The notes under the pieces: model-generated
Told to the model about the DNA's origin: nothing
The model's input: the letters and a program-made list of their open reading frames with translations, nothing else
The model's database searches: none
Program-made: the position numbers and the translations under genes
Assembly (NCBI GenBank): GCA_031265105.1
Contig: JAISDC010000087.1
Coordinates: 1 to 37,461 of the forward strand
Length of the DNA stretch: 37,461 bases
Direction: 5' to 3'
Source of the DNA: Verrucomicrobiales bacterium
GTDB lineage: Bacteria > Verrucomicrobiota > Verrucomicrobiia > Methylacidiphilales > JAAUTS01
In this document: in pieces, positions 545 to 36,948 of the stretch
Numbering within the stretch: the stretch's first letter is position 1
Layout: the number at the start of each line of letters is the position of its first letter

Positions 545-3421
545 ATGAACACACCCATAATAAAAACCCTAACCCTGATATTAACCCTCCTCCCCGCTCT
601 GGCACTGACCGTGGCGGCGGAGCCGAAAGTCGTCAATACCCCCGGCATCACGTATGACGCCGACCAAAGCTACACCAGCGGCGGCACCGGCACGGCGGCA
701 TTATCGGTCACCGGCAGCGGCGTGGTGTACAGCGGCACCCGCATCACCGCCACCGGCACGGCCGCGACCGGCAACGGCCGATGGGGCGCGCACATCGCCA
801 ACCAAGGCGAGGCGTTCCTGTTCAGCAGCACGATTATCGCCGCGGACTCCGGCACGGCGTGGCAACATTTCGGTTTGTATATGAGCGGCTCGGCCAAGCT
901 CACCGGCGAGCAAGTGGTGGTTGACACGCTGTCCGGTTATTCCGCTTACATCACTGACAGTTCCCAGGTGAACGTCAACGGTCTGACGATTATCGGGCAC
1001 GGGACGACGGAACACGGGCTACAACTAGCAACCAACTCCAGCTTCAGCGGCACCGACCTGCGGGTGAGCATCACCGGCTCGGGCAATGTCGGACGCGCCG
1101 TGATTGTGTCCACCGACGCGTCTTTCCACGGCGTGAATGTGGATATTGATGTTAGTGGCCGTTCCTTGCGCGGCATTACCTTGGGCGAGGGTACCGCGAC
1201 TAACAGCATGGTCACCGGCACCAATATCAACATCACCATGCTGGGAACCGGCGACGCTGTTTTTGTCGGCCCTGGCGGTTGGATTGAGGTCGCCGGTCTC
1301 ACGGTAAGCGGCACCGGCGAGAATGTCAGGGCGGTGGCGGTGGCCGGCGGCACCATGACGGTGAACACCGGCACCTTCCACATGACCCAAACCGGCGGCA
1401 CCCTGCGTCGCGCGGCAGTCGGTGTGGGCGAAGGCGGCGGGTTAATTCTCAATCATGTGGAGGTATCCACCGCTGGAGCCGATTACGCAGGCATTCAGGT
1501 GTTAGCTAACGGCGCGACAGAGAGCGCCACCAGACTGACGGTCAACGGTGGCAACATTAAATCGGCGGATGGCGCCGGCTTGCTGGTAGCTGGCGACAGC
1601 ACCAATGGCGCGGACATCACTATTGCCGATGGCGCGCAAATCAGCGGCACCTCGGCGCTGGAATTGACCACCGCCAACGCCGACACGACAGTCAACATCA
1701 CGGTCTCCGGCAATTCCACGCTGGCCGGCGAGGTCAACGCCAGTGGTAGTTCCAACACCGCCCTCACCCTCGACCACAGCGCCATCACCGGCAACGTCAC
1801 CGCCAGCGGCAACAGCCAACTCATCCTCACCGCCAGCAATGGTGCCACCATCAGCGGCGACATCACCGGCAACAACAGCAGCGCGCTGGCCGTGACCGTC
1901 AGCGACGACAGCACCTTGACCGGCAACATCACCACCAGCGACAACAACAAAACCACCGTCAACATCAGCGCCGGCGGCATCATCACCGGTGACCTCAGCG
2001 GCAGCGACAACAGCGCGCTGGCCGTGACCGTCGGCGACGGCGGCATCTTGACCGGCGGCCTCAGCGGCGACCGCTTGACCGTCACCGTGAACACGGGCGG
2101 CCACGTCACCATCAACAAGGACTCCGACTTCGGTTCACTCGACAACCACGGCACCCTGAACGTCGGCGATTACCAGGTAAGCGTCGGCGACTTGACGAAC
2201 AACGGCGCCATCAACATCAGCGTGAACAACGACACCGGCGCCGGCGGCTCCCTCACCATAACCGACACCGCCAGCGGCACCGGCGCCATCCACCTCACCA
2301 CCACCGGCGACGGTCAAGCCGACCCGAACCAAGTCCTCCCCAACGTGGTAAAAGGCGAAGGCACCGAACACTGGACTTGGGACGAAGTGGACTGGGGCCT
2401 GGAAAAACTAATCGTCACCCCCAACCCCGACGGCACCATCACCGTCAAAGAAGACGGCGTCAGCCCCGCCGGCGCCGTCTTAGACAGCGCCATCGCCGTC
2501 CAGCAATCCATGTGGTTCGCCCAGCAAAACAGCTTGCTCAAACGCATGGGTGAGTTGCGCTATGGAGCGCGGGCATCCTTGCCCGCTGGCGGGCGAGACG
2601 CCCGCGCTCCATATGGACTGATAGAAAATATCTGGCTCAGAAGTTATGGGCAACAGCTAAACGTCGGCAGCCAAGTATCGGGCAAAGCCTACGAGCAACT
2701 CATCTACGGCGTGGACATTGGCACTGACCATAAGTTTACTTTGTCCGCTGACAGTGATCTTTTTCTTGGCGTGTACGCCGGTTACGGCCGCAGCGATCTC
2801 GATTATCGCACCCCCGGCACTGACGGTGAGATTAATAGTTACTACGGCGGTCTCTATGCCACTTGGCTCCACGCCAGCGGCTTCTACATCGACGCCACCG
2901 TCAAGGCTGCCAGTGTCAACAACGACCTGAAGGCCCCTTACGGCAACACTCAACTCACCGCCAGCTACAGCGACGTGAATATCGGCGGTAGTATCGAAAT
3001 CGGTCACAAGTTCACCTTCACCGATGATTGGTTCATCGAGCCACAACTCCAAGTGAACTACCTCCATATCCTCGCTGAGAATTACACCGCCGGCCCGATG
3101 ACCATCAGCGCCCAAGACCTTGACGCCCTGCAACTCCGCATCGGCAGCCTCTTTGGTCGCAGTATAAAACTCACCAACAGCGGCGCGTTACAACCCTACC
3201 TCAAGGTCGGCGGCGTCGAAACCATCAGCAGCGGCGGCACCCTCCGCAACGGCTACCAGTCCACTCGCGCTAACACTGACGGTGCCAGAGCGGAGTTAGG
3301 CGGCGGTATTATCTGGCAACTGGACGCTGACAATCAACTCCACCTTGATTACGAAGCCTCCTTCGGCGACAAGTATGACAAGCCCTGGGGCCTAACCGCC
3401 GGCTATCGCCATCAGTTCTAA
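545..3421 (+). CDS. autotransporter (type Va secretion) with C-terminal beta-barrel
   Basis: This encodes a 958-residue secreted surface protein. I chose ATG 545 because it begins a classic signal peptide (MNTPIIKTLTLILTLLPALA, cleavage near AAEPK); the upstream ATG at 470 sits in a hairpin repeat. Residues from about 30 to 650 form a Thr/Ser/Asn/Gly-rich passenger with short beta-helix-like repeats (forms such as TVSGNSTL and GNVTASGN), typical of a right-handed beta-helix. A linker leads into a barrel from about residue 690 (IWLRSYGQ) to the terminal Phe, matching the autotransporter-domain pattern in which the barrel inserts into the outer membrane. An in-frame palindromic element interrupts the linker (2561-2613). 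The function of the passenger (adhesin or other) cannot be read. Homologous fragments occur at 32188-32328 and 37244-37461. Confidence 0.93.
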   Translation: MNTPIIKTLTLILTLLPALALTVAAEPKVVNTPGITYDADQSYTSGGTGTAALSVTGSGVVYSGTRITATGTAATGNGRWGAHIANQGEAFLFSSTIIAADSGTAWQHFGLYMSGSAKLTGEQVVVDTLSGYSAYITDSSQVNVNGLTIIGHGTTEHGLQLATNSSFSGTDLRVSITGSGNVGRAVIVSTDASFHGVNVDIDVSGRSLRGITLGEGTATNSMVTGTNINITMLGTGDAVFVGPGGWIEVAGLTVSGTGENVRAVAVAGGTMTVNTGTFHMTQTGGTLRRAAVGVGEGGGLILNHVEVSTAGADYAGIQVLANGATESATRLTVNGGNIKSADGAGLLVAGDSTNGADITIADGAQISGTSALELTTANADTTVNITVSGNSTLAGEVNASGSSNTALTLDHSAITGNVTASGNSQLILTASNGATISGDITGNNSSALAVTVSDDSTLTGNITTSDNNKTTVNISAGGIITGDLSGSDNSALAVTVGDGGILTGGLSGDRLTVTVNTGGHVTINKDSDFGSLDNHGTLNVGDYQVSVGDLTNNGAINISVNNDTGAGGSLTITDTASGTGAIHLTTTGDGQADPNQVLPNVVKGEGTEHWTWDEVDWGLEKLIVTPNPDGTITVKEDGVSPAGAVLDSAIAVQQSMWFAQQNSLLKRMGELRYGARASLPAGGRDARAPYGLIENIWLRSYGQQLNVGSQVSGKAYEQLIYGVDIGTDHKFTLSADSDLFLGVYAGYGRSDLDYRTPGTDGEINSYYGGLYATWLHASGFYIDATVKAASVNNDLKAPYGNTQLTASYSDVNIGGSIEIGHKFTFTDDWFIEPQLQVNYLHILAENYTAGPMTISAQDLDALQLRIGSLFGRSIKLTNSGALQPYLKVGGVETISSGGTLRNGYQSTRANTDGARAELGGGIIWQLDADNQLHLDYEASFGDKYDKPWGLTAGYRHQF
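2561..2613. repeat. palindromic element inserted in frame in the autotransporter
   Basis: TATGGAGCGCGGGC (2561-2574) is repeated in inverse at 2600-2613, with a nested GCCCGC-tgg-CGGGC hairpin between them. The hexamer TATGGA occurs at both ends (2561-2566 and 2612-2617), compatible with a target duplication. Translation through it gives ARASLPAGGRDARAP, a Gly/Ala/Arg-rich segment unlike the rest of the protein. The frame is kept open. Confidence 0.85.
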
Positions 3422-3429
3422 CAGCGCAT

Positions 3430-3536
3430 TGGGACACAGAGAACACAGAGCAGACACAGGGATTCACAGAGATTTTATTAAACTAAACATCACCCCTGTG
3501 TTTCTCTGTGCCTGCTCTGTGTGCCTCTGTGGCCAA
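3430..3536. repeat. imperfect palindrome, 'cacagagaacacagag' family
   Basis: The intergenic space between the autotransporter and cutA is filled by two arms of cacagag-type repeats (left 3430-3475, right about 3495-3536) that are mutually inverted around an AT-rich centre. It separates convergent genes and could act as a bidirectional terminator, but it has no clean stem plus T-run. Confidence 0.85.
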
Positions 3537-3878: not shown

Positions 3879-4772
3879 TTATTTCGTTAAAAAATACCGC
3901 CGCTGCTTGTCGCTGACGGTGAGGCCGACGCGCGCCATCACTTGCAGCAAATCTTCCCAGACCTTGCGTTTCTCGCTGTTGACGGGATTGCGCAGCAGGT
4001 ATGCGGGATGGTAGGTCGGCATCAGCGGGATGCCCTGGAATTCCGTCCACTGCCCGCGGCGCTGCGTGATGGCGGCGCGGCCGGTCTTGAACAGGCCCTC
4101 GATGGCGGTGTTGCCGAGCGCGACCAGCGCCTTGGGCCGGATGATGCGCACTTGCTCGCAGATGTACGGGCGGCTGACGGCGATTTCGTCCATCGTCGGC
4201 TTGCGGTTGCCGCTGCTGCCGGGCGGCATGTCGGGGCGGTATTTCAGAATGTTGCCGATATACACGTCGGCGCGTTGCAGGCCCATCGCCTGAATCATCT
4301 TGGTCAGCAACTGGCCGGCGCGGCCGACGAACGGCTCGCCCTGCGCGTCCTCGTCCGCGCCGGGCGCCTCGCCGATGAACATGATTTGCGCGTCCGGCGC
4401 GCCGACGCCGAACACCATGTTTTTCGCGTACTTGAACATGGCGCGGTATTCGGCGTTGGCGCTGATGGTGGCGGCCAGTTGCTCCAGGGCGGCGGCTTTT
4501 TGCGCGGAGTCGAGATTCAGCGGCGGCGCGTCACCGGCAGCGGCGGGAACGGCAATCGGCGCGGCGGCGCTGACAGCGGCGGGCCGGCGCGACTCCCGGC
4601 GCTCATCGTCAGCGGCGGCGCTGGTGGTGCGGCGTACCGGCAGCGGCGGCGATTTTTTGCGGCGCGACTTCAGCGCGTCGAACGTGGCGGCGCTGACCTC
4701 GACGGTTTGCGCGCCCAGGTCGCGGAGGGTCCGCAAATAATCCACCGTCGCGTTTTCGAGCTGCTGGTTCAT
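3879..4772 (-). CDS. uracil-DNA glycosylase, family 4-like, without Fe-S cysteines
   Basis: This 297-residue protein has a disordered Ala/Arg/Pro-rich N-terminus (about residues 35-85) and a C-terminal uracil-DNA glycosylase domain. Motif 1, GEAPGADED, lies at 134-142, followed by [12 protein letters not shown] (145-156). The second catalytic loop, HPAYLL, lies at 255-260. These identify a family 4-type enzyme that excises uracil from DNA in base-excision repair. Canonical family 4 enzymes bind a 4Fe-4S cluster through four cysteines. Here the CxxC before motif 1 is replaced by KYAKN (114-118), the usual KCRP is KYRP (177-180), and the fourth position is Ser200. The only cysteine in the protein is Cys205. 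It may therefore fold without a cluster. It sits between rluD and cutA on the same strand. Confidence 0.88.
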
Positions 4773-4840: not shown

Positions 4841-5773
4841 TCATACGGGGCCAGCCGCGGTTAAAAATTTTTCAAACTCCGCAAAGTCAGCCGGCAGCGG
4901 CGCGACAAATTCCAGTCGCCGACCGTCAACGGGATGGGTCAGCAACAGTCGCCGCGCGTGCAACAATTGCCGCGTCACGCCAGCGGCGGCGAGCCACGGA
5001 ATGTTCCGCCCGTAAACGCGGTCGCCGACCACGGGGCAGCCGGCGCTGGCGCAGTGGACGCGGATTTGATGCGTGCGGCCGGTGTGAATCCGCAGTTCCA
5101 GCAGCGCGGCGCGCGGCAATTTTTTCACCACGCGAAAATCCGTGCGCGCCGTCCGCCCGCCCGCCGTCAGCGCCGCCATCCGCTGCCGGCGCGCCGGGTG
5201 CCGGCCGATGTTCGCCGTCCACGTACCGACCGGCGCTGACGGTGGCGGCGAGACCCACGCGGCGTAATATTTTTCGGTTTCCCGCGCCTTGAATTGCGCG
5301 GCCAGTTGGCGGTGCGCGCCGTCGGTTTTCGCCACCACCAGCGCGCCGCTGGTGTCACGGTCGAGCCGGTGCACGATGCCGGGCCGCTCGACGCCGTTGA
5401 TGCCGGACAACTGGCCCCGGCAATGAAACAGCAGCGCGGCGACCAGCGTGCCGTCGCGGTGACCGGCGGCGGGATGCACCACCACGCCGGGCGCCTTGTT
5501 GATAACCAGCAACTGCTCGTCCTCGAACAGGATGTCGAGCGGCATGGCCAATGGCGTCACGCTCAGCGGCCGCGGCGCCGGCTCGCTGACGGTGATGACG
5601 TCACCGGCAGCGGGCTTTGATTTGGCGGCCAGCGCCGCGCCGCCGACGGTGACCAGCCCGCGCCGTAGCAATTCCTGCACCCGCGTCCGCGACAGCGCCA
5701 GCCGCGCCGCCAGCACTTTGTCCAGCCGCTGCCGGTGATCGGCGGCGGTCCAAATGTACGTGTATGAATTCAA
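4841..5773 (-). CDS. rluD: RluD-type 23S rRNA pseudouridine synthase
   Basis: The 310-residue product has an N-terminal S4 RNA-binding domain (about 14-65, RLDKVLAARL...SRTRVQELLRRG) and a RluA-family catalytic domain. The catalytic Asp is D138 in HRLDRDTSG (135-143). Downstream signatures include GRTHQIRVH and VVGDRVYG. RluD makes pseudouridines in helix 69 of 23S rRNA and helps ribosome assembly. Length and domain order match RluD rather than the shorter RluA, although exact target assignment is inference. The start ATG at 5773 overlaps antisense sequence upstream of the kinase gene. Several GCTGACGGT motifs fall inside, including a near-inverted pair at 5585-5611. Confidence 0.9.
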   Translation of the reverse strand: MNSYTYIWTAADHRQRLDKVLAARLALSRTRVQELLRRGLVTVGGAALAAKSKPAAGDVITVSEPAPRPLSVTPLAMPLDILFEDEQLLVINKAPGVVVHPAAGHRDGTLVAALLFHCRGQLSGINGVERPGIVHRLDRDTSGALVVAKTDGAHRQLAAQFKARETEKYYAAWVSPPPSAPVGTWTANIGRHPARRQRMAALTAGGRTARTDFRVVKKLPRAALLELRIHTGRTHQIRVHCASAGCPVVGDRVYGRNIPWLAAAGVTRQLLHARRLLLTHPVDGRRLEFVAPLPADFAEFEKFLTAAGPV

Positions 5774-6924: not shown

Positions 6925-6949
6925 GCTGACGGTGACCGTCACGGTCAGT
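6925..6949. terminator. inverted GCTGACGGTGAC pair between convergent genes
   Basis: CTGACGGTGAC is followed at once by a near-perfect inverse, GTCACGGTCAG, with one mismatch. The pair spans the junction between the kinase stop (6920) and the stop of the convergent minus-strand ORF (6945). There is no clear T-run, so termination is a guess; the inverted-motif arrangement itself is plain. Confidence 0.45.
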
Positions 6950-7787: not shown

Positions 7788-8450
7788 TTAATCCTGTAAC
7801 AACAGGGCATCGGAAGGCAAATCCACATCATCCGTATTATAGAACGGCTTGACTACCTTGGCGGTGGCTTTCACCCAAATGGCGGAATTGCCAATGGTGT
7901 AGGCCACCACTCCTTGCGTGCCCCACACATTGTTAGCATTCAGGGTCTTACCCTGGGAAAATTCCGCCGCTGTGCTGTATGCGCCGCGCGACACCAGCAG
8001 CGGAATCTGGGACTCACTCGAGGTGGACAAGCCCTTGACGTAATTAAACGCCAGATTGTCCCTGGTGAGTTGCAAGCTGGCATTGGCAGTGGTTCCCACA
8101 TCGGTTTTGGGTTTCGCGCTGTTACCCCAAATCAATTTGGGTTCGGTCAACTCCTTGCTTCTCAACAAGCTCATGAAAAACTGCGAACTGGAGCTGGCAT
8201 CGGTACGAGTTCCGGAATCTTCCAACCCACCGCTGGGAAAAGAGCCGTTTTCTTCGTTGGCCAGCGTGAACAGAATCAAGCCCAATTGCCGGACATTCGC
8301 CACGTCCGCGGTTTGCTTGGCAGTGTTCAGCGCCTTGTTAATACCGGGCACCGCCAGGCCGGCCAGGATGCCAATAATCGTTACCACCACCAGCAGTTCA
8401 ATCAGGGTGAAACCGCGGTGGTCCATTCGTTTCATGATTTGCTTAGACAT
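7788..8450 (-). CDS. prepilin-like protein with type IV N-methylation motif
   Basis: The 220-residue product has a type III (class IV pilin) leader: MSKQIMKRMDHRG cleaved before FTLIELLVVVTIIGILAGLA (F14 onward, Glu at +5). A long hydrophobic helix follows, then a 170-residue Ser/Thr/Asn-rich globular part. Prepilin peptidase would process it for a type IV pilus or a type II secretion pseudopilus. Verrucomicrobia and planctomycetes often carry many lone genes of this kind, so a role in a specific machine cannot be assigned. The ATG at 8450 is preceded by GGAGG at a rather long spacing of about 14 nt. It is transcribed alone and ends in a strong terminator. Confidence 0.85.
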   Translation of the reverse strand: MSKQIMKRMDHRGFTLIELLVVVTIIGILAGLAVPGINKALNTAKQTADVANVRQLGLILFTLANEENGSFPSGGLEDSGTRTDASSSSQFFMSLLRSKELTEPKLIWGNSAKPKTDVGTTANASLQLTRDNLAFNYVKGLSTSSESQIPLLVSRGAYSTAAEFSQGKTLNANNVWGTQGVVAYTIGNSAIWVKATAKVVKPFYNTDDVDLPSDALLLQD

Positions 8451-8571: not shown

Positions 8572-9588
<1,017 letters not shown>

Positions 9589-12899: not shown

Positions 12900-13268
12900 G
12901 TGCCACGCATTCTAGGGCCAACCGTCCCGCTGCAAATCACCGAACCACCCGCCCGCCGTCAGCGTGTGAGCAAGTCGCCAATAACCCCGCCGCCCGCCTG
13001 TGAACAATTCGTGAAGAAGTCACCGTCAGCGGCGGCAGGCCGTCCCGCCAAAGGAGAAAACGCGGCGCAACAAAGGCGGCGGCAATGTGAACAACTCCGC
13101 GCGTCACCCCACGCTGACCATGGTGTGCGGTGTCGCGTAAATCCGCATCATCAGCGTCCAGCGGCGTTCATTGGTAGTTAAAGTCTCTTCGCGCCTTGGC
13201 GTCTTCGCGGCCTGAGTTCCCAAAAAATCCGTGTCCATCAGCGGCAAACTGTGATTAACTCTCCCCCC
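12900..13268. other. dnaB-recQ divergent intergenic region
   Basis: This 369-bp gap should contain promoters for both genes. I see one exact ACCGTCAGC motif (13022-13030), one GCTGACCATG variant (13113-13122), and a half-copy of the gcgccttggcgtcttcgcgg repeat near 13180-13215. No confident -35/-10 pair, DnaA-box cluster or RNA gene is visible. Confidence 0.5.
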
Positions 13269-15101
13269 ATGCCCGCGCTGCTTGCCACGCTGAAACAAAC
13301 CTTCGGTTACGACCAGTTCCGGCCGTTGCAACGCGAAATCATGGCGGCGGCGCTGGCGGGGCGCGACGTGTTCGCGCTGTTGCCCACCGGCGGCGGCAAA
13401 TCGCTGTGTTTCCAGTTGCCCGCGCTGCTCAAGCCGGGGTTGACGCTGGTGGTGTCGCCGCTCATCGCGCTGATGAAGGACCAGGTGGACGCGCTGACGG
13501 TGGCGGGCGTCAAGGCGACGTTCCTCAATTCCTCACTGTCAGCGGACGAGACCCGCGCGCGGCTCGCGGGCCTGCACCGCGGCGCATACAAACTGCTCTA
13601 CGTCGCGCCGGAACGGCTGCTGCTCGACCACTGGGAGGAAAACCTGCGCGCGTGGCACATCGCGCTCGTCGCCATTGACGAGGCGCACTGCATCAGCGAG
13701 TGGGGCCACGATTTCCGCCCCGAATACCGCCAGCTCGCCAGGCTCCGCGAGTTGCTGCCGGACGCGCCGCTGATGGCGCTGACCGCCACCGCCACCGAGC
13801 GCGTGCGCGCGGACATCGTCAGCGGGCTGGCGTTGCGCGAGCCGGCGAAATTCATCGCCTCATTCAACCGCCCGAACCTCACCTACCGCGTCAAGGCGAA
13901 GGAAAAACCGTTGCAGCAAATCCTGGATTTTCTGGCCCGGCATCCCGACGAGAGCGGCATCATCTATTGCTCCAGCCGCGCCGGCACGGAACTGCTCGCG
14001 GAATCGCTGTCCGCGCGCGGCCACGCGGCCAAGCCCTACCACGCCGGCCTTGACTCCGCGGTGCGCAGCGCCAACCAGGAGGAATTCCTGCGCGACGAGA
14101 CGAAAATCATCTGCGCCACCATCGCGTTCGGCATGGGCATCAACAAACCTAACGTGCGCTTCGTCATCCATCACGACCTGCCGAAAAACGTCGAGGGCTA
14201 TTACCAGGAGACTGGCCGCGCGGGCCGCGACGGCCTGCCCGCCGAGTGCGTGCTGCTCTACAGCACCGGCGACGCCGCCAAGCAGCAGCATTTCATCGAC
14301 GAAAAGCCCGACGAGCAGGAGCGCACGGTCGCCCGCCGCCAGTTGCTCCGCATGCTGCACTACGCCGAATGCACGGTCTGCCGGCGCACGGACTTGCTCG
14401 AGTATTTTTCCGAGCAATGGACGGAGGAAAACTGCGGCGCGTGCGACAATTGCCTCGAGCCGCGCGAGACGTACGACGGCACCGTCAGCGCGCAAAAATT
14501 CCTCTCGTGCGTGTTCCGCGCCCGCCGCGCCTGCGGCTACAGCGTCGGCATGAACAGCGTCGCGGAAATTCTCACCGGCGGCGCGAGCGAGAAAATCAAA
14601 ACCCGCGGCTTCGACCAACTCAGCACCTACGGCATCGGCAAGGATTTGCACCGTAGCGAATGGCTGGCCATCGGGCGCGAGTTAATCCGGCTGAAACTGC
14701 TCGACCAGTCGCAGGACCAATACGCGACGCTGACAGTGAGCGACGCCGGCATGACCGCGTTGAAGAACCGCGCGCCCGTCCGCCTCACCCGCCCGCTCGC
14801 GCCGCCGCCCGGCGCGCCGAAACGCCGCGCCGCGCAGACCGGCGCCATCGAGTGCGACGAGGAATTGTTCAACCTGTTGCGGACGCTGCGCCGCCAACTG
14901 GCCGACGCGCGGGGCGTGCCCGCCTACATCATCTTCGGCGACGTGACGCTGCGGCAACTGGCGCGTTTTTACCCGCTGACGGCGGAGGAATTCGGCCGGC
15001 TCAGCGGCGTCGGCGAGAAAAAGCTCGCCGAGTTTTGCGCGCCCTTCACCGCGGCGATCCGCCAATACCTCGACACCCACCCGCGCGTGAATTTCAAATA
15101 A
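13269..15101 (+). CDS. recQ: RecQ family ATP-dependent DNA helicase
   Basis: I start at ATG 13269 (610 residues); a GTG six codons upstream is possible. Helicase motifs are complete: LLPTGGGKS (37-45, Walker A), IDEAHCISEWGHDFRPEY (DEAH box), TATATERVR, GIIYCSSR, and YYQETGRAGRDG. The RQC zinc site follows (CTVCRRTD ... CGACDNC), then a winged-helix region, and a C-terminal HRDC domain (about 525-605, GVPAYIIFGDVTLRQLA). RecQ unwinds 3'-5' and acts in recombination repair and stalled-fork processing. Length and domain order match E. coli RecQ. Confidence 0.96.
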   Translation: MPALLATLKQTFGYDQFRPLQREIMAAALAGRDVFALLPTGGGKSLCFQLPALLKPGLTLVVSPLIALMKDQVDALTVAGVKATFLNSSLSADETRARLAGLHRGAYKLLYVAPERLLLDHWEENLRAWHIALVAIDEAHCISEWGHDFRPEYRQLARLRELLPDAPLMALTATATERVRADIVSGLALREPAKFIASFNRPNLTYRVKAKEKPLQQILDFLARHPDESGIIYCSSRAGTELLAESLSARGHAAKPYHAGLDSAVRSANQEEFLRDETKIICATIAFGMGINKPNVRFVIHHDLPKNVEGYYQETGRAGRDGLPAECVLLYSTGDAAKQQHFIDEKPDEQERTVARRQLLRMLHYAECTVCRRTDLLEYFSEQWTEENCGACDNCLEPRETYDGTVSAQKFLSCVFRARRACGYSVGMNSVAEILTGGASEKIKTRGFDQLSTYGIGKDLHRSEWLAIGRELIRLKLLDQSQDQYATLTVSDAGMTALKNRAPVRLTRPLAPPPGAPKRRAAQTGAIECDEELFNLLRTLRRQLADARGVPAYIIFGDVTLRQLARFYPLTAEEFGRLSGVGEKKLAEFCAPFTAAIRQYLDTHPRVNFK

Positions 15102-19197: not shown

Positions 19198-20013
19198 TCA
19201 ATCCACCAGCGTCAGCGTCCCCGCCGCCTGCGGCGAACGGTGGGCGCGGCCTTCAACCACCCGCGCCCAGTTGGTGATGACCGGCGGACGCCCCGCGCCG
19301 GCGGCGTAATCAAAGCGGACAAAATTGGCGCGCAACCGCAGGCCGGCGGAAAATTCCTTCAACCCGAGCCGCTGCAACAGCGCCGCGGCGGGCAGGGCGA
19401 CGGTGACGCGCCAGCCGTCGGCGCTGACGGTGGCGGTGTTGCGCAGGCCGGCCAAATCCCATTCCTTGAAAAACCAGCACTCGCGCGCGGTGAGGTCGCC
19501 GCGCACCATGCCCTGCGCGTCGCTCTCAACGCTGCCGGTGAACAAATACACGCCGTCAAACACGCCGTGGCCGGGACTGAATTGCAACTCGATGTATTCG
19601 CGCGCGTCACCGACCGGGTCGAGAAACACCTCCACGCAGTCGCCCTTGAAATATTGCAGGTCGCGCGGCGGCGGCGCTGCCGGTGACAGCGGCGCCTCGG
19701 GCAGAATGTTGACCGGCGCGCCGGCGCATTCAAAGCGGAGGAACAAGTCTTGTTTCGTCCACAACGCCAGCACGCGCGTGTTTTGCGGCGGCGCCGCGAA
19801 AGTCATCGCCAGCGGCGGGCTGAATTGCCCGATGACCGCGGCCCGCCGCCACACGGGGTCGCCGGTGGCGGCGTCCAGCGCCGGTTCCGCCGCGGTAAAC
19901 GGCACCGCCAGTTCCGGGCGGGCGCCGTCACCGTCAGCGGCGACGGCCGCGACCGTCAAAGCCATCACGGTCAGCACCGCCAACAAAATATCCCGCCAAA
20001 ATCCACCGCACAT
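19198..20013 (-). CDS. secreted CBM9-like carbohydrate-binding domain protein
   Basis: The 271-residue product starts with a signal peptide (hydrophobic stretch ILLAVLTVMALTVAAVAA, cleavage near residue 26). The rest reads as a single beta-sandwich domain with hallmarks of family 9-type carbohydrate-binding modules: LDAATGDPVWRRAAVIGQF (the 'small difference, Trp' opening), LFLRFEC, FKGDCVEVFLDP, YIELQFSPGHGVFD and WRVTVALP. Such domains bind sugar chains or occur alone in environmental bacteria as periplasmic or surface proteins. No catalytic domain is attached. It lies between an unknown gene and tRNA-Ser, and may relate functionally to the large lyase-like protein at 15135, although they are not adjacent. 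Confidence 0.72.
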   Translation of the reverse strand: MCGGFWRDILLAVLTVMALTVAAVAADGDGARPELAVPFTAAEPALDAATGDPVWRRAAVIGQFSPPLAMTFAAPPQNTRVLALWTKQDLFLRFECAGAPVNILPEAPLSPAAPPPRDLQYFKGDCVEVFLDPVGDAREYIELQFSPGHGVFDGVYLFTGSVESDAQGMVRGDLTARECWFFKEWDLAGLRNTATVSADGWRVTVALPAAALLQRLGLKEFSAGLRLRANFVRFDYAAGAGRPPVITNWARVVEGRAHRSPQAAGTLTLVD

Positions 20014-20125
20014 GACTAGTCACCATACGCAATTTCACCGAATATGCAATCGCGCCGGCGCGGACCGTGAAAACGCATTTTGATTGCCACCGTCAGCGGA
20101 GGAATTTAAGCTGTCAGCGTCTTCT

Positions 20126-20500: not shown

Positions 20501-20980
20501 TTACAGGGTTTTAAGCGCTTGCTGAATCGCCGCGAAGTTCGGCAAATCCTTCGGCGTCGGGGTTTGCTCGCTGTAGCGGATGAGGCCGTCTTGGTCCACG
20601 ACGAACGCGGCGCGGGCGCTGACGCTGCCCAGGCCAAGCAGGTCGTGCAGCAGCACGCCGTAGGCTTCGGCGGTTTTCTTGTTCAAATCGCTGAGCAACG
20701 GCAGCGTGATGCGTTCTTTCAACGCCCACGCTTCTTGCGCGAACGGGCTGTCCACGCTGACGGCGTACACGGCGGCGTTCAGGCTTTCGTAGGCCGCGAG
20801 GCCGCCGCCGCTGAGGTCGCACATTTCCCGCGTGCAGACGCCGGTGAACGCCAGCGGGAAGAACAGGATGACGGTGTTCCTTTGGCCGAAGTTGTCGCTG
20901 AGTTTCACGTCAACCACACCGTCAGCGGTCTTGCGCTTGAGGGTGAAGTCGGGTGCCTTGCCGCCGGTTGGTATTGCCAT
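20501..20980 (-). CDS. peroxiredoxin of the BCP/AhpE type
   Basis: The 159-residue product begins APDFTLKRK and carries the peroxidatic motif [14 protein letters not shown] with Cys49 and Thr46; Cys54 could be a resolving residue. [13 protein letters not shown] and the later [14 protein letters not shown] are typical AhpC/TSA blocks. The FPLAFTGVC form is closest to AhpE-like peroxiredoxins, which reduce peroxides with thiol donors. It is cytoplasmic with no signal peptide. It is downstream of pnp on the same strand in transcription direction, with a 78-bp gap holding GCTGACCATG. Oxidative-stress control cannot be read from the sequence, though a Fur-family gene lies nearby. Confidence 0.92.
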
Positions 20981-21058: not shown

Positions 21059-23179
21059 TTATTTCGTTTCCCCGCGCTCGCGCAGGGCGGCTTTGCGGGA
21101 AAGTTTCACGCGGCCCTTGTCGTCCACGCCGATGCACTTCACCCACACTTCCTCGCCCATGCGGACGACATCCTCGGTGCGGTTCACGCGCGTCTCGGAT
21201 AGCTCGGATATATGCACCAAGCCGTCCTGCCCCGGAAACACTTGCACGAACGCGCCAAAATCCTTGATGCTGACCACTTTGCCACGGTAGGTTTTGCCGA
21301 TGGCGATTTCGGCGGTCATGCCGTCGATGATTTCCAGCGCGCGCGCCATGCCGTCGCCGTTGTTGCAGTAAATCCGCACGGTGCCGTCGTCGTCGATGTT
21401 AATCTCCGCGCCGGTCTCGGCGGTGATGCCTTTGATGGTCTTGCCGCCGGGGCCGATGAGCAGGCCAATCTTGTCCGGGTTAATCTTCACCACCTCGATG
21501 CGCGGGGCGTATTGCGAAAGCTGGCCGCGCGGGGCGTCGATGACGCTGCTCATGAACGTGAGGATTTCCTGGCGCGCGCCGGCGGCTTGCACCACGGCGC
21601 GTTGCAACATCTCGACGGGGATGCCGGGGAGCTTGAGGTCAAGCTGGAAGCCGGTGACGCCCGTCTTGGTGCCGCACAGTTTGAAGTCCATGTCGCCGAA
21701 ATGGTCCTCGCTGCCGATGATGTCGGTCAGCAACAGATGCCGTTGCAGTTCATTGTTAGCATCAAACTCGGTGACGAGGCCGACGCTGATGCCGGCGACG
21801 ATGTCGCTGACCGGCACGCCCGCGTCCATCAGCGACAGGCAGCCGCCGCACACGCTGGCCATCGAGGTCGAGCCGTTGGATTCCATCACCTCGCTGCTGA
21901 TGCGGATGGCGTAGGGGAACTTGGCCTCCGGCGGCACGACCGCCGCCAGTGACCGCTCGGCCAGCGCGCCATGGCCGATTTCGCGCCGGTTGAGGCCGCC
22001 GGTGCGCCCCGTCTCGCCGACGCTGAAGGGCGGGAAGTTGTAGTGCAGGATGAAGCGCTTGGTGTCCTCGCCGCCGGTGTAGGCGTCGAGCGACTGCGCC
22101 TCGTCCACCGGCGCGAGCGTGGTGAAGCACAGCGCCTGAGTCTCGCCGCGCGCGAACAGCGCCGTGCCGTGCGCCCGCGGGATGAGGCCGACCTCGCCGC
22201 TGAGCGGGCGGATTTGGCCGATGCCGCGCCCGTCGCACCGCTGCTGGCGGTCGAGGATGCTCAGGCGGAACGCTTTTTTCTGCAAGTAATCGAACGCCTG
22301 GTTGATTTCAAACGCGGTGGCGGCGGGGAATTTCTCCAGGATTTTCGCCTTCACCTCGTCCTTGAGCGCGCCGACGGCTTTTTGCCGCGCGACTTTGCCG
22401 GAGGTGTACAGCGCGCCCTCGATGCGGCTGCCTGCGACTTCGTAGGCGATTTCGAGCAACTCGTCTTTCGCCAACAACAGCGCCACCTCACGCTTCGGCT
22501 TGCCGGCAAGCGCGGCCAGTTCCTTTTGGGCGCTGACGATGACGCGCACTTGCTCCTGCGCGAACGCGAGCGCTTTGTTAAACTCCTCCTCCGGCAGTTG
22601 CAGCGCGGAGCCTTCAATCATAATCGGCTCGTTCTCAGTGCCCGCGTAAACCAAATCCAGGTCGGACACCTCGATTTGCGCGTGCGTCGGATTGACAATG
22701 AATTGCCCGTCCACGCGCCCGACGCGCACCGCGCCAATCGGCCCGGCGAACGGCACATCGCTCACCGCCAGCGCGGCGGAGGCGCCGTTAATCGTGAGAA
22801 TATCCGGCTCGTTCGCGCCGTCGGCGGAGAGCAAAATGGCGATGATTTGCGTGTCATAAAAATAACCCTTCGGGAACAACGGGCGCAGCGGCCGGTCGGT
22901 CATGCGCGCGGTGAGGATTTCCTTTTCGCTGGGGCGGCCCTCGCGACGGAAATAACCGCCGGGGATTTTGCCGGCGGCGGCGGCTTTCTCGCGATAATCC
23001 ACCGTCAGCGGGAAGAACTCCTGCCCGTCCTTGACGGTGGTGGCGGAAACGGCGCTGACGAAGACAATGGTCTCGCCGAGGCTGACGGTGACGGCGCCAT
23101 CGGCAAGTTTGCCCATTTTACCGGTTTCAAATTTAATTGGCAGGGCGCCGACTGACGCCGTGGTTGAATGAATTGACAT
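21059..23179 (-). CDS. pnp: polyribonucleotide nucleotidyltransferase (PNPase)
   Basis: The 706-residue product has the full PNPase plan: first RNase PH domain ([33 protein letters not shown]), alpha-helical linker, second RNase PH domain ([32 protein letters not shown]), a KH domain ([16 protein letters not shown]) and an S1 domain ([28 protein letters not shown]). It degrades RNA 3'-5' phosphorolytically and is part of RNA turnover complexes. Exact GCTGACGGT motif copies occur only near its 5' end (23001, 23081). As in many bacteria, pnp follows rpsO. Confidence 0.97.
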
Positions 23180-23346
23180 ATGTACGGTTACTTTCTATTG
23201 GCGCTTAACCGGACCATTGGCGGCCCGGTTAAACTTTTAAGGCGAGGCAACCGGCGGAAAGTTCAGAGTACAAAACAAACATCCGCTGACGGTGATGACT
23301 GTTTTGTTCTCTGTGGCTTTCGCGCGTGGCACCCCGCCTTAACGGT

Positions 23347-24147: not shown

Positions 24148-24282
24148 GCGCGGGATGATAACACGCGCCGCGGTTGGGCGACAAGGATTACTGACGGGGA
24201 GCACTTGGCCGCGCAATCCCGGACCGGTCCTCCCGTCGAGTCACCGTCAGCGAGACGGCGATGAATCTGGGACGGCACCGGA

Positions 24283-25212
24283 TTATTTCACCGTCAGCGG
24301 CGGGACTTCGTCGATGTTGTGGGGGGTGGCCTGGTAGATATTGTTGATCCAGTTGCTGAATAGCAGGTGGCTGTGGGTGCGCCAGGTGAGCAGCGGTTCG
24401 CGGGCGGTGTTGTCGTCGGGGAAGTAGTTGGCGGGTTTGGCAATCGGCAGGCTGGCGGCGAGGTCGCGGAGATATTCCTTTTTCAAGGTGTCGCGGTCAT
24501 ATTCGCTGTGGCCGGTGAGAAAAACCCGCCGGCTGTCACGGGTGGCAATCAGATAAACCCCTGCCTCGTCGGACTCGCTGAGGATTTGCAGTTCGGGATA
24601 TTTTTCAATATCGTCCCGCAATACAGTGGTGTGCCGACTGTGCGGGACGGGGAATACGTCGTCAAAACCGCGCAGCAGCGGGTGGCCGGGCTGGCGGTTG
24701 CGGTGCGGGAAGATGCCGAACATTTTGCCGGGCAGCGGGTGCTTGGGGATGCCGTAGTAGTGGTACAAGGCGGCTTGCGCGCCCCAGCAGATGAACAGGG
24801 AGGACCAGACGTTTTGCGCGGCCCAGTCGAAGATGCGGGCCAGCTCGTTCCAGTACTGGACTTCCTCGAAGGGCAGGTGCTCGACGGGCGCGCCGGTGAT
24901 GATCAGGCCGTCGAACTTGTGCGGACGGATGTCGTCAAAGTTGCGGTAAAATTCGGCCAGATATTCCGCGGAGGTGTTTTTGGCGGTGTAACTCTTGGTT
25001 GTCAGGAACACCGGCTCGATTTGAATCGGGGTGTTGCCGAGCAGGCGCAGCAGTTGGGTTTCGGTGGTTTCCTTGGTCGGCATCAGGTTGAGGATGGCGA
25101 TGTGCAAGGGGCGGATGTCCTGGGCCAGGGCGCGATTGCGGCCCATGACAAAGATGTTTTCCCCGGCAAGGATACTGGCGGCGGACAGGCCGTCTGGAAT
25201 GTTGACTGGCAT
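24283..25212 (-). CDS. metA: homoserine O-acyltransferase (MetA family), probably acetyl-CoA-specific
   Basis: The 309-residue product is MetA-like along its whole length: MPVNIPDGLSA, LNLMPTKETTETQLLRLL, SLFICWGAQAAL with catalytic Cys142, and GHSEYDRDTL with His235 and Glu237. Position 111 is Glu (GAPVEHLPFEEV). In this family Glu111 has been linked to acetyl-CoA and Gly111 to succinyl-CoA, so the product is probably O-acetylhomoserine, feeding methionine synthesis. The stop codon is immediately next to a GCTGACGGT motif, which encodes the C-terminal LTV. It is preceded by a long palindrome at 25302-25462 that may hold its promoter region. Confidence 0.93.
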   Translation of the reverse strand: MPVNIPDGLSAASILAGENIFVMGRNRALAQDIRPLHIAILNLMPTKETTETQLLRLLGNTPIQIEPVFLTTKSYTAKNTSAEYLAEFYRNFDDIRPHKFDGLIITGAPVEHLPFEEVQYWNELARIFDWAAQNVWSSLFICWGAQAALYHYYGIPKHPLPGKMFGIFPHRNRQPGHPLLRGFDDVFPVPHSRHTTVLRDDIEKYPELQILSESDEAGVYLIATRDSRRVFLTGHSEYDRDTLKKEYLRDLAASLPIAKPANYFPDDNTAREPLLTWRTHSHLLFSNWINNIYQATPHNIDEVPPLTVK

Positions 25213-25466: not shown

Positions 25467-26204
25467 TCAACGCTCCCAAAACTCCCGCAAATCCTCCGGC
25501 CACGGGGCACTGACGGTGACCGGCGCGTCGTCCCAGGTGAACGTCAGCGTCGCGGCGTGCAGGGCGTGGCGGGGGAGCAACAGCAGCGCCGCCAGTTCCG
25601 GCGTCCAGCCGCGCGCGATGAAACGCAGGTAGCAACACTCGTCGGGGCCGTAGATTTTGTCGCCGACCACGGGATGTCCGAGGTGCGCGAGATGGACGCG
25701 GATTTGGTGCAGGCGGCCGGTTTCCAACGTCAGTTCAAGCAAGGAAAACCGGTCACCGTCAGCGGCGCTCTTTGCCGCTAACCGCTGATAATGAGTTATC
25801 GCCGGATAACCGCCGACAGTGACGCCTTGTCGGATATGCACGGCGGCCGGGGCGCGCTTGCTGACGCGGTCGAGCGGCGCGTCAATGACGCCGCGCGCCG
25901 GCGCGTGGCCGCTGACGATGGCGCGATAGGTTTTGCGAATTTCGCGGCGCATGGTCAGCTTGCCGAGCCGGGAGGCCGCTGCCGGTGAGCGCGCGACCAG
26001 CACCAGCCCGCTGGTCTCGCGGTCGAGCCGATTGACGATGGCGGCAAACTCGCCGACGAACCGTCGCTTAATCCATTCGAGCAACGTGAATTGCCCGTCG
26101 GGCCGCGTCGGGTGAACCAGCAAATGCGCGGGTTTGTTGACCACCAGCCAGTCGGCGTGCTCGCTGACGATGACCGGTTCCGCTGACGGTGACAAATGCA
26201 GCAT
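25467..26204 (-). CDS. RluA-family pseudouridine synthase without S4 domain
   Basis: From ATG 26204 (MLHLSPSAEP) the product has 245 residues. The ORF opens far upstream through the 26214-26307 palindrome, but that part is repeat sequence, not protein. Catalytic Asp61 sits in VNRLDRETSG (His before Arg replaced by Asn), with GRLHQIRVHLAHLGHPVVGDKIYG further on. It modifies an RNA uridine, but whether the target is rRNA or tRNA is not clear. It is divergent from rarA, with only the palindrome between them, and contains several copies of the motif (25755, 26182). Confidence 0.88.
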   Translation of the reverse strand: MLHLSPSAEPVIVSEHADWLVVNKPAHLLVHPTRPDGQFTLLEWIKRRFVGEFAAIVNRLDRETSGLVLVARSPAAASRLGKLTMRREIRKTYRAIVSGHAPARGVIDAPLDRVSKRAPAAVHIRQGVTVGGYPAITHYQRLAAKSAADGDRFSLLELTLETGRLHQIRVHLAHLGHPVVGDKIYGPDECCYLRFIARGWTPELAALLLLPRHALHAATLTFTWDDAPVTVSAPWPEDLREFWER

Positions 26205-26315: not shown

Positions 26316-27665
<1,350 letters not shown>

Positions 27666-28428: not shown

Positions 28429-31400
28429 ATGAAACACACAGCAATCACCGTGGACGGCAATGAAGCGGCCGCATCCGTGGCCTACCGCCTCAGCGAAGCC
28501 ATCGCCCTTTACCCCATCACCCCCTCGACGCCCATGGGCGAGTCTTCCGACGAATGGTCGGCCAAGGGCAAAAAGAACTTGTGGGGCAATACGCCCGCCG
28601 TGGTGGAAATGCAGTCGGAAGCCGGGGTGGCGGGGGCCATCCACGGGATTTTGCAGGCCGGCACGCTGGCCACCACGTTCACCGCGTCGCAGGGGCTGCT
28701 GTTGATGATTCCAGCCATGTATAAAATCGCCGGCGAGTTGTCGCCGTTCGTGCTGCACGTCACGGCGCGGGCGCTGGCCACCAATTCGCTGTCCATTTTT
28801 GGCGACCATTCCGATGTAATGGCGGTGCGTCAGACCGGTTTCGCCATGCTCAATTCCGCCAATGTGCAGGAAGCACAGGACCTGGCCTGCATCGCGCACC
28901 TGGCGACGTTGCAAACCCGGGTGCCGTTCCTGCATTTCTTCGACGGCTTCCGCACCTCGCATGAAATCAACCAGATTGACTACCTGACCGATGACATGCT
29001 GCGCCGCCTGTTGGACCCCAAGCTGCTGGACAATTTTTATCAAAACGCGCTGACGCCCGACCGGCCGACCATTCGCGGCACCACGCAGAATCCCGATGTG
29101 TATTTCCAGACCCGCGAGGCGGGCAATCCGTTCTACCTGGGCACCCCGACGGCGGTGCAGCAAATCATGGATGATTTTGCCAAGGTCACGGGACGGCAAT
29201 ATCATTTGTTCGACTACACCGGCCATCCCCAGGCCGAGCAGGTCATCGTGGTGCTGGGTTCCGGCGGCGAAACCAGCATTGACACGGTCAATCATTTGAA
29301 CGCTGACGGTGGCAAGTTTGGCGTGCTGCAAGTGCGCCTGTTCCGCCCGTTCGACGTGAATTTGTTCGTCCGGGCGCTGCCGCCGACGGTGCAAAAAATC
29401 GCCGTGCTGGACCGCACCAAGGAACCCGGCTCGGCGGGCGAGCCGCTGTATCAGGACGTGGTCACCGCCCTGCACGAAGTCGCGGACGCGCCCCAGGCGC
29501 AGGTGTGCGGCGGCCGTTACGGCATCGGCTCGAAGGAGTTCACCCCGGCGATGGTCAAGGCGATTTTCGACGAGTTGCAAAAAGCCGCGCCGCGCCGCCA
29601 TTTCACGGTCGGCATCATTGACGACGTCACCGGCACCTCGCTGACGGTGGACGACGATTACGACATCGAACCCAGCGAGAACAAGCGCGCGGTGTTCTTC
29701 GGCCTCGGCTCCGACGGCACGGTCGGCGCCAACAAGAACACCATCAAAATCATCGGCGACGAGACCGAGTTCAAGCCGCAGGCGTATTTCGTGTACGACT
29801 CGAAAAAATCCGGCGCGATGACCATCTCGCACCTGCGCTTCGGCCCCCAGCGCATCAACTCGCCGTACCTCATCAAGCAGGCGAATTTCATCGGCGTCCA
29901 CCAATGGCAGTTCGTGGAAAAATGCGACTTCACCGCCTACGCCGCCAAGGGCGCGACGCTGCTGTTGAACAGCCCCTTCACCGTGTACAAAATCTGGGAG
30001 CACCTCCCGCTGGAGTTGCAAGCCGCCATCCTGGAGAAAAAACTCCGGGTCTATGCCATTGACGCCTATCGCGTGGCGCGCGAGACCGGCATGGGCAGCC
30101 GCACCAACACCATCATGCAAACGTGCTTCTTCGCCATCAGCGGCGTGTTGCCGCGCGAGGAAGCCATCGCCCAAATCAAGAAATCCATCGAGAAAACCTA
30201 CCTGCGCAAAGGCCGGGCGGTGGTGGAAAAAAACTGGAACGCGGTGGACCAGACCCTGGCCAACCTGCACGAAATCATTGTGCCCGAGCAAGTCACCTCG
30301 ACCCACCGCCGCCCGGCGGTCATCCCCGCCGAGGCGCCCGCCTTCATGCACCGCGTCACCGCGCTGATGATGGAAGGCAAGGGCGACCTGCTGCCGGTGA
30401 GTGCCTTCCCCGTGGACGGCATCTGGCCGACCGACACCGCCCGCTGGGAAAAACGCAATTTATCGCAAATGATTCCGGTTTGGGCGCCGGAGTTGTGCAT
30501 CCAGTGTAATAAATGCGTGCTAGGCTGCCCGCACGCCACCATCCGCGGCAAGTTCTACCCGGACGCCGCGCTCCAGGACGCGCCGCCGACCTTCAAGCAC
30601 ACCGCCTTCAAGTCGCGGGAAAATCCCGGCTGCCAGTTCACCATCCAAATCGCGCCGGAAGATTGCACCGGCTGCGGGCTGTGCATCGCGGTCTGCCCGG
30701 GCAAGGACAAAAACGACCCGAAACGCAAGGCGCTGACCATGCTGCCGCAGGAACCCATCGTGGACGCCGAGCGGGTCAACTGGGATTACTACCTCGGCCT
30801 GCCGCTGCCCGACCGCGCCAAGCTCAAAACCGACCTGGTCAAGGATTCGCAATTCCTCCAGCCGCTGTTCGAGTTTTCCGGCGCCTGCGCGGGTTGCGGC
30901 GAGACGCCGTATGTCAAGCTCATCAGCCAGTTGTACGGCGATCGCGCGCTGATTGCCAACGCCACCGGCTGCTCGTCCATTTACGGCGGCAACCTGCCGG
31001 TCACGCCGTATGCCAAAAACGCTGACGGTCGCGGCCCCGCGTGGGCCAACTCGCTGTTCGAGGACAACGCCGAGTTCGGCCTGGGCCTGCGCATGGGCGT
31101 TGACCAAAAAACCGACCGGGCGCGCTATTTGCTGGCCTCACTGTCAGCGGCGCTCGGCGACCAGTTGGCCGGTGAACTGCTCAACGCCGACCAAAGCACC
31201 GAGGCGGGCCTGGCCGCCCAGCGGCAGCGGGTCGCCGAATTGCGCGACCGGCTCAGGACGCTGACCGTGCCCGAGGCGCCGGAATTGAGCCTCATCGCGG
31301 ATTATCTGGTCAAGAAAAGCGTGTGGATTATCGGCGGCGACGGCTGGGCCTATGACATCGGCTACGGCGGCCTCGACCACGTCATCTCGCTCGGCAAAAA

Positions 31401-32120: not shown

Positions 32121-32167
32121 CGCCGCTGAGAGTGCCGCGCACCGTCAGCGGCGGCTGGCGCGCGTTT
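32121..32167. terminator. motif-containing hairpin plus T-run after nifJ
   Basis: CGCCGCTGA (32121-32129) pairs with TCAGCGGCG (32145-32153). The right arm holds an exact ACCGTCAGC, and the left arm is a diverged facing copy (GCTGAGAGTG). A run of seven or more T follows about ten bases later. It is likely to end nifJ transcription, though the gap between stem and T-run is longer than usual. Confidence 0.5.
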
Positions 32168-32187: not shown

Positions 32188-32328
32188 ATGATTTCCAGCG
32201 GCACCGGCAATGTCACCGTCAGCGGCGGCAACGGCATGAATGGCGACGTGACCAACAGCGGCAGCGGCACGCTGACCGTGAGCCTGAACAGCAGCAGCCT
32301 GACCGGCGACTTTTCCCTGTCACCCGGT
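32188..32328 (+). pseudogene. fragment of an autotransporter passenger
   Basis: In the plus-strand frame beginning at ATG 32188, the peptide reads GTGNVTVSGGNGMNGDV, then NSGSGTLTVSLNSSSLTGDF, the same composition and repeat phrasing as the passenger of the autotransporter at 545-3421 (e.g. GNVTASGNSQLIL, STLTGNI). The match stops where the trxB 3' end begins (32329). There is no signal peptide or barrel. It is best explained as a scrap of a paralogous gene; TVSG and LTVS here are encoded by the dispersed motif. Confidence 0.7.
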
Positions 32329-36491: not shown

Positions 36492-36654
36492 GGTAAATTG
36501 GCAGTTTACGGTTTTTGCCGGCCAGTGCCAGCGGGTTTTTTGAAATCGGGAAGACGCGGAAGCGGGTTGCCCAATCGAACGCTGATGCTGGCGTCATTGA
36601 CAGCGGCGATGTTCGTCAGGCTGACAGTGGGAAAAGTCGCGGCCGACCGGTGAC

Positions 36655-36948
36655 TCACGCGCGCCGGTCCGCCGACTTGGTTCCGCTGGCGCGGCGGGCC
36701 AGATTTTCCTCGACCAACGCGCTGACCGTCTCCTCCAGCGAGCGGGTTTGCTTGCCGAGTTTTTTTCGCACCATGACCGCCAGCGCCGGCGCGGGAATTG
36801 TCGCACCGTCAGCGTCGATTTGCTCCAGCAACGCGCGCACCGCCTCCTCAATAAACATCCGGCTGCTGTGGCCGCTATGCTGACAATGTCGCATGACCTC
36901 GCGCATCAAGTCGCGGCTGAAACGGATGTTAATTTCGGCACTGGCCAT
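36655..36948 (-). CDS. RHH-like small DNA-binding protein
   Basis: The 97-residue product starts SAEINIRFSRDLMREVMRHC, a strand followed by a helix, and then HSSRMFIEEAVRALLEQID, a second helix, matching ribbon-helix-helix proteins such as antitoxins. A helical C-terminal half ends in a basic tail. It has the same plan as the 18-kb pair but no close sequence match. Upstream of its start is AT-rich DNA and a perfect palindrome (37000-37016), which could be its operator. No toxin partner is adjacent. Confidence 0.6.
   Translation of the reverse strand: MASAEINIRFSRDLMREVMRHCQHSGHSSRMFIEEAVRALLEQIDADGATIPAPALAVMVRKKLGKQTRSLEETVSALVEENLARRASGTKSADRRA

What the first reader, a model, noticed from the sequence alone, without database searches (positions are those of the whole stretch)
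1895..36813. Massively over-represented dispersed motif GCTGACGGT, candidate uptake-sequence-like signal
Forty exact copies of one 9-mer occur in 37.5 kb, 20 in each orientation. Assuming 60% GC and independence, about 0.4 would be expected on both strands. Copies occur in several reading frames (read as LTV, ADGD, TVS or SPSA) and between genes, so protein function does not explain them. Balanced orientation argues against Chi- or KOPS-like polar signals, and frame-independence against codon bias. About one per kb with frequent inverted pairs is how DNA uptake sequences behave in Neisseria and Pasteurellaceae. Other options are a methylation or nucleoid-protein site, or a HIP1-like mutational product.
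Basis: partly seen in the sequence, partly recalled or inferred. Interest (0 to 1): 0.88.

Follow-up and report, generated by a model that had tools for sequence, protein, structure and literature searches.

The report
Candidate DNA-uptake watermark in Verrucomicrobiota
Thousands of copies of one short DNA word, spread through the genomes of one uncultured bacterial genus and spelled differently in a sister species, look like the self-recognition tags some bacteria use to take up DNA of their own kind, a system known so far only from two unrelated bacterial families.

Summary
The window holds 41 exact GCTGACGGT (20 +, 21 -; chance 0.33). The whole genome holds 2661 (1315/1346) against 16 for the reversed word. 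The full motif is a graded 12-mer, CGCTGACGGTGA. Among 388 Verrucomicrobiota genomes and all 62 of the order, only one genus is rich in it. Four of its five genomes carry it. The fifth carries a different spelling, CGCTAAYGRCGA, about 1415 times, and almost none of the first. At aligned positions the two spellings replace each other by point changes: G in the window's genome at 38 of 42 sites where the sister has CGCT[A]A (background 24%, p = 4e-15). Strands are unpolarised, all five open reading frames are enriched, and flanks are unrelated, so Chi, KOPS, codon bias and mobile repeats do not fit. The genus has ComEC, DprA, PilT/PilU, PilB/PilC and many prepilins. Best explanation: a DNA uptake sequence with two dialects, maintained by biased natural transformation, in a phylum where I found none described. 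Uptake itself, and the receptor, are not shown. The main rival is another genome-wide DNA-binding or methylating protein (HIP1-like). 'Frequent inverted pairs' was not confirmed.

The parts
1895..1903 (-). GCTGACGGT copy (in autotransporter gene)
3912..3920 (+). GCTGACGGT copy
5235..5243 (+). GCTGACGGT copy
5585..5593 (+). GCTGACGGT copy
6925..6933 (+). GCTGACGGT copy (between genes)
8779..8787 (+). GCTGACGGT copy
9100..9108 (+). GCTGACGGT copy
9195..9203 (+). GCTGACGGT copy
13022..13030 (-). GCTGACGGT copy
13493..13501 (+). GCTGACGGT copy (recQ-like gene)
14481..14489 (-). GCTGACGGT copy
15573..15581 (-). GCTGACGGT copy
15637..15645 (-). GCTGACGGT copy
15657..15665 (-). GCTGACGGT copy
16063..16071 (-). 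GCTGACGGT copy
16104..16112 (-). GCTGACGGT copy
16281..16289 (+). GCTGACGGT copy
16308..16316 (-). GCTGACGGT copy
16697..16705 (+). GCTGACGGT copy
16761..16769 (+). GCTGACGGT copy
17587..17595 (+). GCTGACGGT copy
17667..17675 (-). GCTGACGGT copy
19423..19431 (+). GCTGACGGT copy
19930..19938 (-). GCTGACGGT copy
20089..20097 (-). GCTGACGGT copy (intergenic)
   Evidence: kept in G004
20918..20926 (-). GCTGACGGT copy
23001..23009 (-). GCTGACGGT copy in PNPase gene; kept in G003, G004, G005
23081..23089 (+). GCTGACGGT copy in PNPase gene
23285..23293 (+). GCTGACGGT copy (intergenic)
24243..24251 (-). GCTGACGGT copy (intergenic)
24290..24298 (-). GCTGACGGT copy; same place reads CGCTAACCGCGA (other dialect) in G002
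25755..25763 (-). GCTGACGGT copy; same place reads CGCTAACGGTGA in G002
26182..26190 (+). GCTGACGGT copy; kept in G003, G004, G005
26538..26546 (-). GCTGACGGT copy
27032..27040 (+). GCTGACGGT copy
29302..29310 (+). GCTGACGGT copy (PFOR gene)
29640..29648 (+). GCTGACGGT copy (PFOR gene); kept in G003, G004, G005
31021..31029 (+). GCTGACGGT copy (PFOR gene); kept in G003, G004, G005
32141..32149 (-). GCTGACGGT copy
32215..32223 (-). GCTGACGGT copy, inside a dispersed autotransporter-like repeat fragment
36805..36813 (-). GCTGACGGT copy
7788..8450 (-). prepilin-like protein with N-terminal methylation motif; one of 14 detected in this genome; not shown to be the receptor

Best explanation
The word is the core of a DNA uptake sequence: a non-palindromic, graded 12-bp motif, CGCTGACGGTGA (strict CGCTG, C/T at 7, T/C at 10, G at 11). 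A pilus-borne DNA receptor of one uncultured Verrucomicrobiota genus would prefer it when cells take up free DNA by natural transformation. Fragments carrying good matches would be taken up and recombined more often, so matches accumulate everywhere by point mutation (molecular drive) in both strands and in any tolerated reading frame, and DNA without them is left out. In one species of the genus the preference has changed to CGCTAAYGRCGA (or the reverse happened in the other four), and sites have been rewritten in place to the other dialect. Shown here: the genome-wide excess, its grading, lack of polarity, genus restriction, the two reciprocal dialects, in-place replacement by substitution, and the presence of ComEC, DprA, PilT/PilU, PilB/PilC and prepilins. 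Inferred: that the reader of the motif is an uptake receptor, that it is a prepilin, and that the cells are transformable.
For: 2661 copies against 16 for the reversed word. Extended CGCTGAC..TG occurs 1293 times in 709 kb against 7 reversed. Excess falls with mismatch load as 93x, 10.5x, 2.4x, 1.3x, 1.0x, close to a proven Pasteurellaceae uptake sequence (438 vs 3, 947 vs 86, 2635 vs 1252 in PMC1939737). All five reading frames without an in-frame stop are enriched, from about 24-fold to about 185-fold over codon expectation. Strand use equals 50:50 and rejects 60:40. Flanks are unconserved. Only genus g1 is rich among 62 order and 388 phylum genomes. G002 has 1415 CGCTAAYGRC against 14-25 in its four genus-mates, and 77 GCTGACGGT against 1703-2661. 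In-place replacement: 38/42 vs 36/149, and in the other direction 38/103 vs 36/573, both p = 4e-15. Gene set: ComEC, PilT/PilU/PilB, DprA in 6 of 7 genomes, prepilins.
Against: No transformation or uptake data are at hand for this genus. No receptor was identified, and the PF12836 search for ComEA found only long Tex-sized proteins and weak hits. Outgroup genera g2 and g3 have the same competence genes but no motif, so the genes alone do not predict it. Raw density is lower between genes (5.1 per 10 kb) than in genes (9.2), unlike Haemophilus and Neisseria, although relative to local composition it is higher (52-fold vs 30-fold). Close inverted pairs acting as terminators are not enriched.
Confidence: 0.77

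Rival explanations
1. A methylation or intracellular protein-binding site (nucleoid organisation, replication or repair) kept in thousands of copies by selection, in the manner of the cyanobacterial palindrome HIP1.
For: HIP1 reaches a comparable or larger excess (5648 vs 5 expected in Synechocystis, PMC1939737) and has been linked to DNA methyltransferases (PMC4390886 abstract). N6/N4 methyltransferase genes occur in four of the five genus members.
Against: The motif is asymmetric, 12 bp long and graded with degenerate inner positions, unlike a methyltransferase site. G002 keeps 1415 sites of its own dialect yet has no PF01555 match (its draft is 86% complete). Other methyltransferase families were not searched. 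Thousands of coordinated site changes within a genus are not known to me for nucleoid sites.
Confidence: 0.13
2. A polar recombination or segregation signal such as Chi (RecBCD/AddAB) or KOPS (FtsK).
For: The word shares GCTG with E. coli Chi GCTGGTGG and is commoner in coding DNA.
Against: Strand use is unpolarised over 36-39 contigs, with a majority-strand fraction of 0.564 against 0.565 expected for 50:50 and 0.611 for 60:40. G002 is equally unpolarised. The excess is about 93-fold, against 6.7-fold for E. coli Chi (1008 vs 151).
Confidence: 0.03
3. Copies of a mobile or repeated element, or of protein repeats such as those of the autotransporters.
For: An autotransporter gene and two dispersed repeats lie in the window; one motif copy (32215) is in a repeat fragment.
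Against: Flanks beyond the 12-mer are not conserved. Of 42 repeat copies in 709 kb one carries the motif. Orthologous sites differ by substitutions, mostly without gaps. All five open frames are used.
Confidence: 0.01
4. A purely mutational or gene-conversion product, such as biased repair or a homing-like nuclease site, with no uptake step.
For: Grading with mismatch and in-place change would also follow from a sequence-biased conversion process (inference).
Against: No mutational bias known to me reads 12 bp with this specificity, and none flips in step at hundreds of positions within a genus. No candidate enzyme was looked for or found.
Confidence: 0.06

Closest known systems
DNA uptake sequence (DUS) of Neisseriaceae
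   Same: About 12 bp, non-palindromic, hundreds to thousands of copies, several clade-specific dialects, strict short core; type IV pilus and ComEC present (PMC3630211, PMC5031613).
   Different: Different sequence (DUS ATGCCGTCTGAA), different phylum, no ComP receptor identified, uptake not shown; sites commoner per kb in genes than between them.
Uptake signal sequence (USS) of Pasteurellaceae, Hin and Apl types
   Same: About one copy per kb; two dialects at clade level; sites arise by point mutation, not insertion (PMC1626085); mismatch-load curve almost the same as for the Apl type (PMC1939737).
   Different: Different sequence (AAGTGCGGT or ACAAGCGGT), no AT-rich flank signature seen, different phylum, uptake not shown.
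HIP1 of cyanobacteria
   Same: A short word at very high genome-wide excess, clade-specific.
   Different: HIP1 is a palindrome (GCGATCGC) with methyltransferase sites inside; this motif is asymmetric and has a replaced second dialect.
Chi sites
   Same: Short GC-rich word common in genes.
   Different: Chi is only about 7-fold over-represented in E. coli; this motif has no polarity and a far larger excess.

Membership tests
DUS/USS (uptake sequences) | Genome-wide over-representation of one short non-palindromic word | tested here: met
DUS/USS (uptake sequences) | Found on both strands and in several reading frames without polarity | tested here: met
DUS/USS (uptake sequences) | Excess decreases gradually with mismatch load | tested here: met
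   one search compared with PMC1939737
DUS/USS (uptake sequences) | Sites arise by substitution in existing sequence, not by insertion | tested here: met
   about four fifths of 126 aligned sites are gap-free against G002
DUS/USS (uptake sequences) | Clade-specific dialects | tested here: met
DUS/USS (uptake sequences) | Type IV pilus and competence genes (PilT, PilB, ComEC, DprA) | tested here: met
   ComEA not found by PF12836
DUS/USS (uptake sequences) | Enriched between genes relative to genes | tested here: inconclusive
   raw density lower (5.1 vs 9.2 per 10 kb), composition-normalised excess higher (52x vs 30x)
DUS/USS (uptake sequences) | DNA bearing the motif is preferentially taken up | not testable with these tools
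   needs cells
DUS/USS (uptake sequences) | A receptor (ComP-like minor pilin) that binds the motif | not tested
   14 prepilins detected in this genome, 25 in G002; none singled out
Neisseriaceae DUS or Pasteurellaceae USS proper | Shares the consensus of that family and lies in that lineage | tested here: not met
   different word; the organism is Verrucomicrobiota
Chi / KOPS | Orientation bias along the replichore | tested here: not met
HIP1 | Palindromic octamer containing methyltransferase sites | tested here: not met
   asymmetric motif; PF01555 methyltransferases not found in G002

The most novel reading that the evidence does not exclude
A third, independently evolved DNA-uptake-sequence system, the first outside Proteobacteria, in an apparently uncultured Verrucomicrobiota genus. 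It includes a complete dialect switch between sister species in which the genome was rewritten site by site, so uptake specificity acts as a species barrier there too.
Probability: 0.72. Interest if true: 0.92.

Novelty: new variant of a known kind. Interest (0 to 1): 0.87.

Why it matters
Sequence-specific DNA uptake is described only for Pasteurellaceae and Neisseriaceae, both Proteobacteria (PMC5031613, PMC7811141); I know both mainly as host-associated groups. An independent case in another phylum would show that self-recognition in transformation evolves repeatedly, and would allow a test of the idea that it depends on life in host mucosa. The dialect pair at the same genomic positions within one genus gives a natural experiment on whether receptor change drives genome-wide rewriting, and a comparative route to the receptor: a prepilin conserved among the four first-dialect species and diverged in the fifth. 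It also predicts that these bacteria are transformable, which would matter for culturing and genetics.

Tried and rejected
Insertion or mobile repeat: flanks unconserved, and only 1 of 42 dispersed repeat copies carries the motif. Protein repeat or codon bias: all five open frames enriched. Chi/KOPS polarity: none. Terminator-like inverted pairs: no excess of close pairs, opposite orientation 252 of 562 neighbours. PF01555 methyltransferase as owner of the motif: not found in G002, which keeps its dialect. ComEA through PF12836: strong hits are long (about 765-803 aa) Tex-like proteins only. A freely iterated weight matrix at a low threshold drifted towards codon usage and I did not use it for counts. 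Literature: the word itself gives only unrelated (e.g. primer-like) hits; no paper in the library joins uptake sequences with Verrucomicrobia beyond a general review.
Full report
Observation. The window contains 41 exact copies of GCTGACGGT, 20 on the + and 21 on the - strand, where shuffles with the same dinucleotides give 0.33 on average and never more than 2. Base frequencies around the copies show one conserved block, CGCTGACGGTG followed by a preference for A/G and C, and nothing beyond it.

Genome-wide. The window is contig 262 of a draft of 2,995,901 bases. The whole draft holds 2661 copies (1315 forward, 1346 reverse), while the same word read backwards occurs 16 times. That is one copy per 1.1 kb. 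In 709 kb of this genome that I could read, the looser CGCTGAC..TG occurs 1293 times against 7 for its reversed form, which extrapolates to about 5,500 sites per genome.

Shape of the motif. Around the consensus CGCTGACGGTGA, substitutions are hardly tolerated at CGCTG, tolerated in part at 7, 10 and 11, and more freely at 6, 8, 9 and 12. The excess over letter-shuffled control words declines with mismatches as 93, 10.5, 2.4, 1.3, 1.0. The proven uptake sequence of Actinobacillus pleuropneumoniae shows 438 vs 3, 947 vs 86, 2635 vs 1252 and 14278 vs 10796 (PMC1939737), nearly the same curve. E. coli Chi in the same table is 1008 vs 151.

Where the copies lie. With genes called from codon usage, the 9-mer falls in all five reading frames that do not create an in-frame stop: 187, 148, 144, 36 and 18 copies against 4.4, 3.8, 0.8, 0.3 and 0.8 expected from codon usage. 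Raw density is 9.2 per 10 kb in genes and 5.1 between them; relative to local composition the excess is 30-fold and 52-fold. Strand use on 36-39 contigs equals a fair coin and excludes even a 60:40 bias. Close inverted pairs are not in excess.

Relatives. In the order (62 genomes) and an even draw of the phylum (388 genomes), only genus g1 is rich in the motif; everything outside has at most about 95 copies of the 10-mer and 75 of the 11-mer. PNPase relatives place the organism in Verrucomicrobiota; the closest named records are Chthoniobacter flavus and a Candidatus Methylacidiphilales MAG, each 72%. The genome collection does not name the genus. No comparable word appeared de novo in the 80 named Verrucomicrobiota loci (those of 9 kb or more were scanned) or in samples from the order.

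The second dialect. Genus member G002 has only 77 copies of GCTGACGGT. An unguided k-mer search of its DNA gave CGCTAATGGC and CGCTAACGRC instead. CGCTAAYGRC occurs 1415 times in G002 and 14-25 times in the four other members, below its reversed control there (14 vs 27 in the smallest). The two motifs share a 12-bp register and the CGCT start. In a tree of 5328 aligned columns the four first-dialect genomes and G002 form successive branches, with G002 next to the outgroups G001 and G006, which have neither word in excess.

In-place replacement. Aligned to window orthologues, sites at 24290 and 25755 read CGCTAACCGCGA and CGCTAACGGTGA in G002. Over 61.8 kb aligned at 76.5% identity, wherever G002 has CGCT[A]A with matching neighbours, the window's genome has G in 38 of 42 cases, against 36 of 149 in other T[A]A contexts (p = 4e-15). 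In the other direction it is 38 of 103 against 36 of 573 (p = 4e-15). So many sites predate the split, and specificity changed afterwards at the same places by point substitution. Among first-dialect species, exact sites are kept in 5 of 8 (G005) and 4 of 10 (G003) cases, where 23-25% is the background for any 9-mer (small numbers).

Machinery. Each family genome has ComEC; DprA is found in 6 of 7. Tandem PilT/PilU occurs in this genome, and PilB/PilC-like genes lie together on contig 247. Fourteen prepilin-type proteins are found here and 25 in G002, and Verru_Chthon cassette proteins are among those in this genome. ComEA was not found with PF12836. Family members without the motif have the same genes, so the genes permit but do not predict it.

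Mechanism. A trans-acting reader of the motif, whose specificity changed within the genus, explains the coordinated reciprocal dialects. Of known processes, biased DNA uptake with recombination (molecular drive; reviewed in PMC7811141) produces this set: both strands, any tolerated frame, graded mismatches, point-mutational origin and clade dialects. Pasteurellaceae and Neisseriaceae show the same pattern, and there uptake preference is proven (PMC1626085, PMC3630211). I therefore commit to an uptake sequence at 0.77. N6/N4 methyltransferases of PF01555 were not found in G002, and other methyltransferase families were not examined.

Novelty. Sources found here restrict uptake sequences to two families (PMC5031613, PMC7811141), and searches joining them to Verrucomicrobia gave nothing relevant. 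The library lacks most subscription papers and preprints, so prior mention cannot be excluded.

Noticed in passing
window 1-100: The contig begins with a perfect microsatellite (ACTCTCGC) x12.5; octamer runs of this kind may break the assembly (G004 samples also show a repeated AGGGAGCGAG word).
   Followed up: partly
window 11014-11232: Tandem array of a 42-bp unit (5.2 copies) with alternating AAAGTTGACTT/AAAGTGGACTTT halves between the CorA and DnaB genes; function unknown.
   Followed up: no
window 25303-25463: Imperfect palindromic dispersed repeat of about 160 bp; 33 copies in 709 kb of this genome and many in G003 and G004; none carries the motif. MITE- or REP-like.
   Followed up: partly
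window 470-3421 and L009, L024 (G002): Large repetitive autotransporters. In G002, regions C2:1-20000 and C11:12001-32000 hold many of that genome's copies of the foreign dialect (19 of 77 9-mers) and few of its own: possible transfer between dialects or a compositional effect of protein repeats.
   Followed up: partly
L238 (G000 contig 247): The PilB/PilC contig (6.7 kb) has no copy of the motif, where about six would be expected.
   Followed up: no
window 15135-17795, 18422-19129, 19198-20013: Three sizeable proteins without any Pfam match; the first carries an unusually dense cluster of motif copies.
   Followed up: no
window 32180-32330: Stretch similar to autotransporter repeat coding sequence, about 9 copies in 709 kb.
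   Followed up: no
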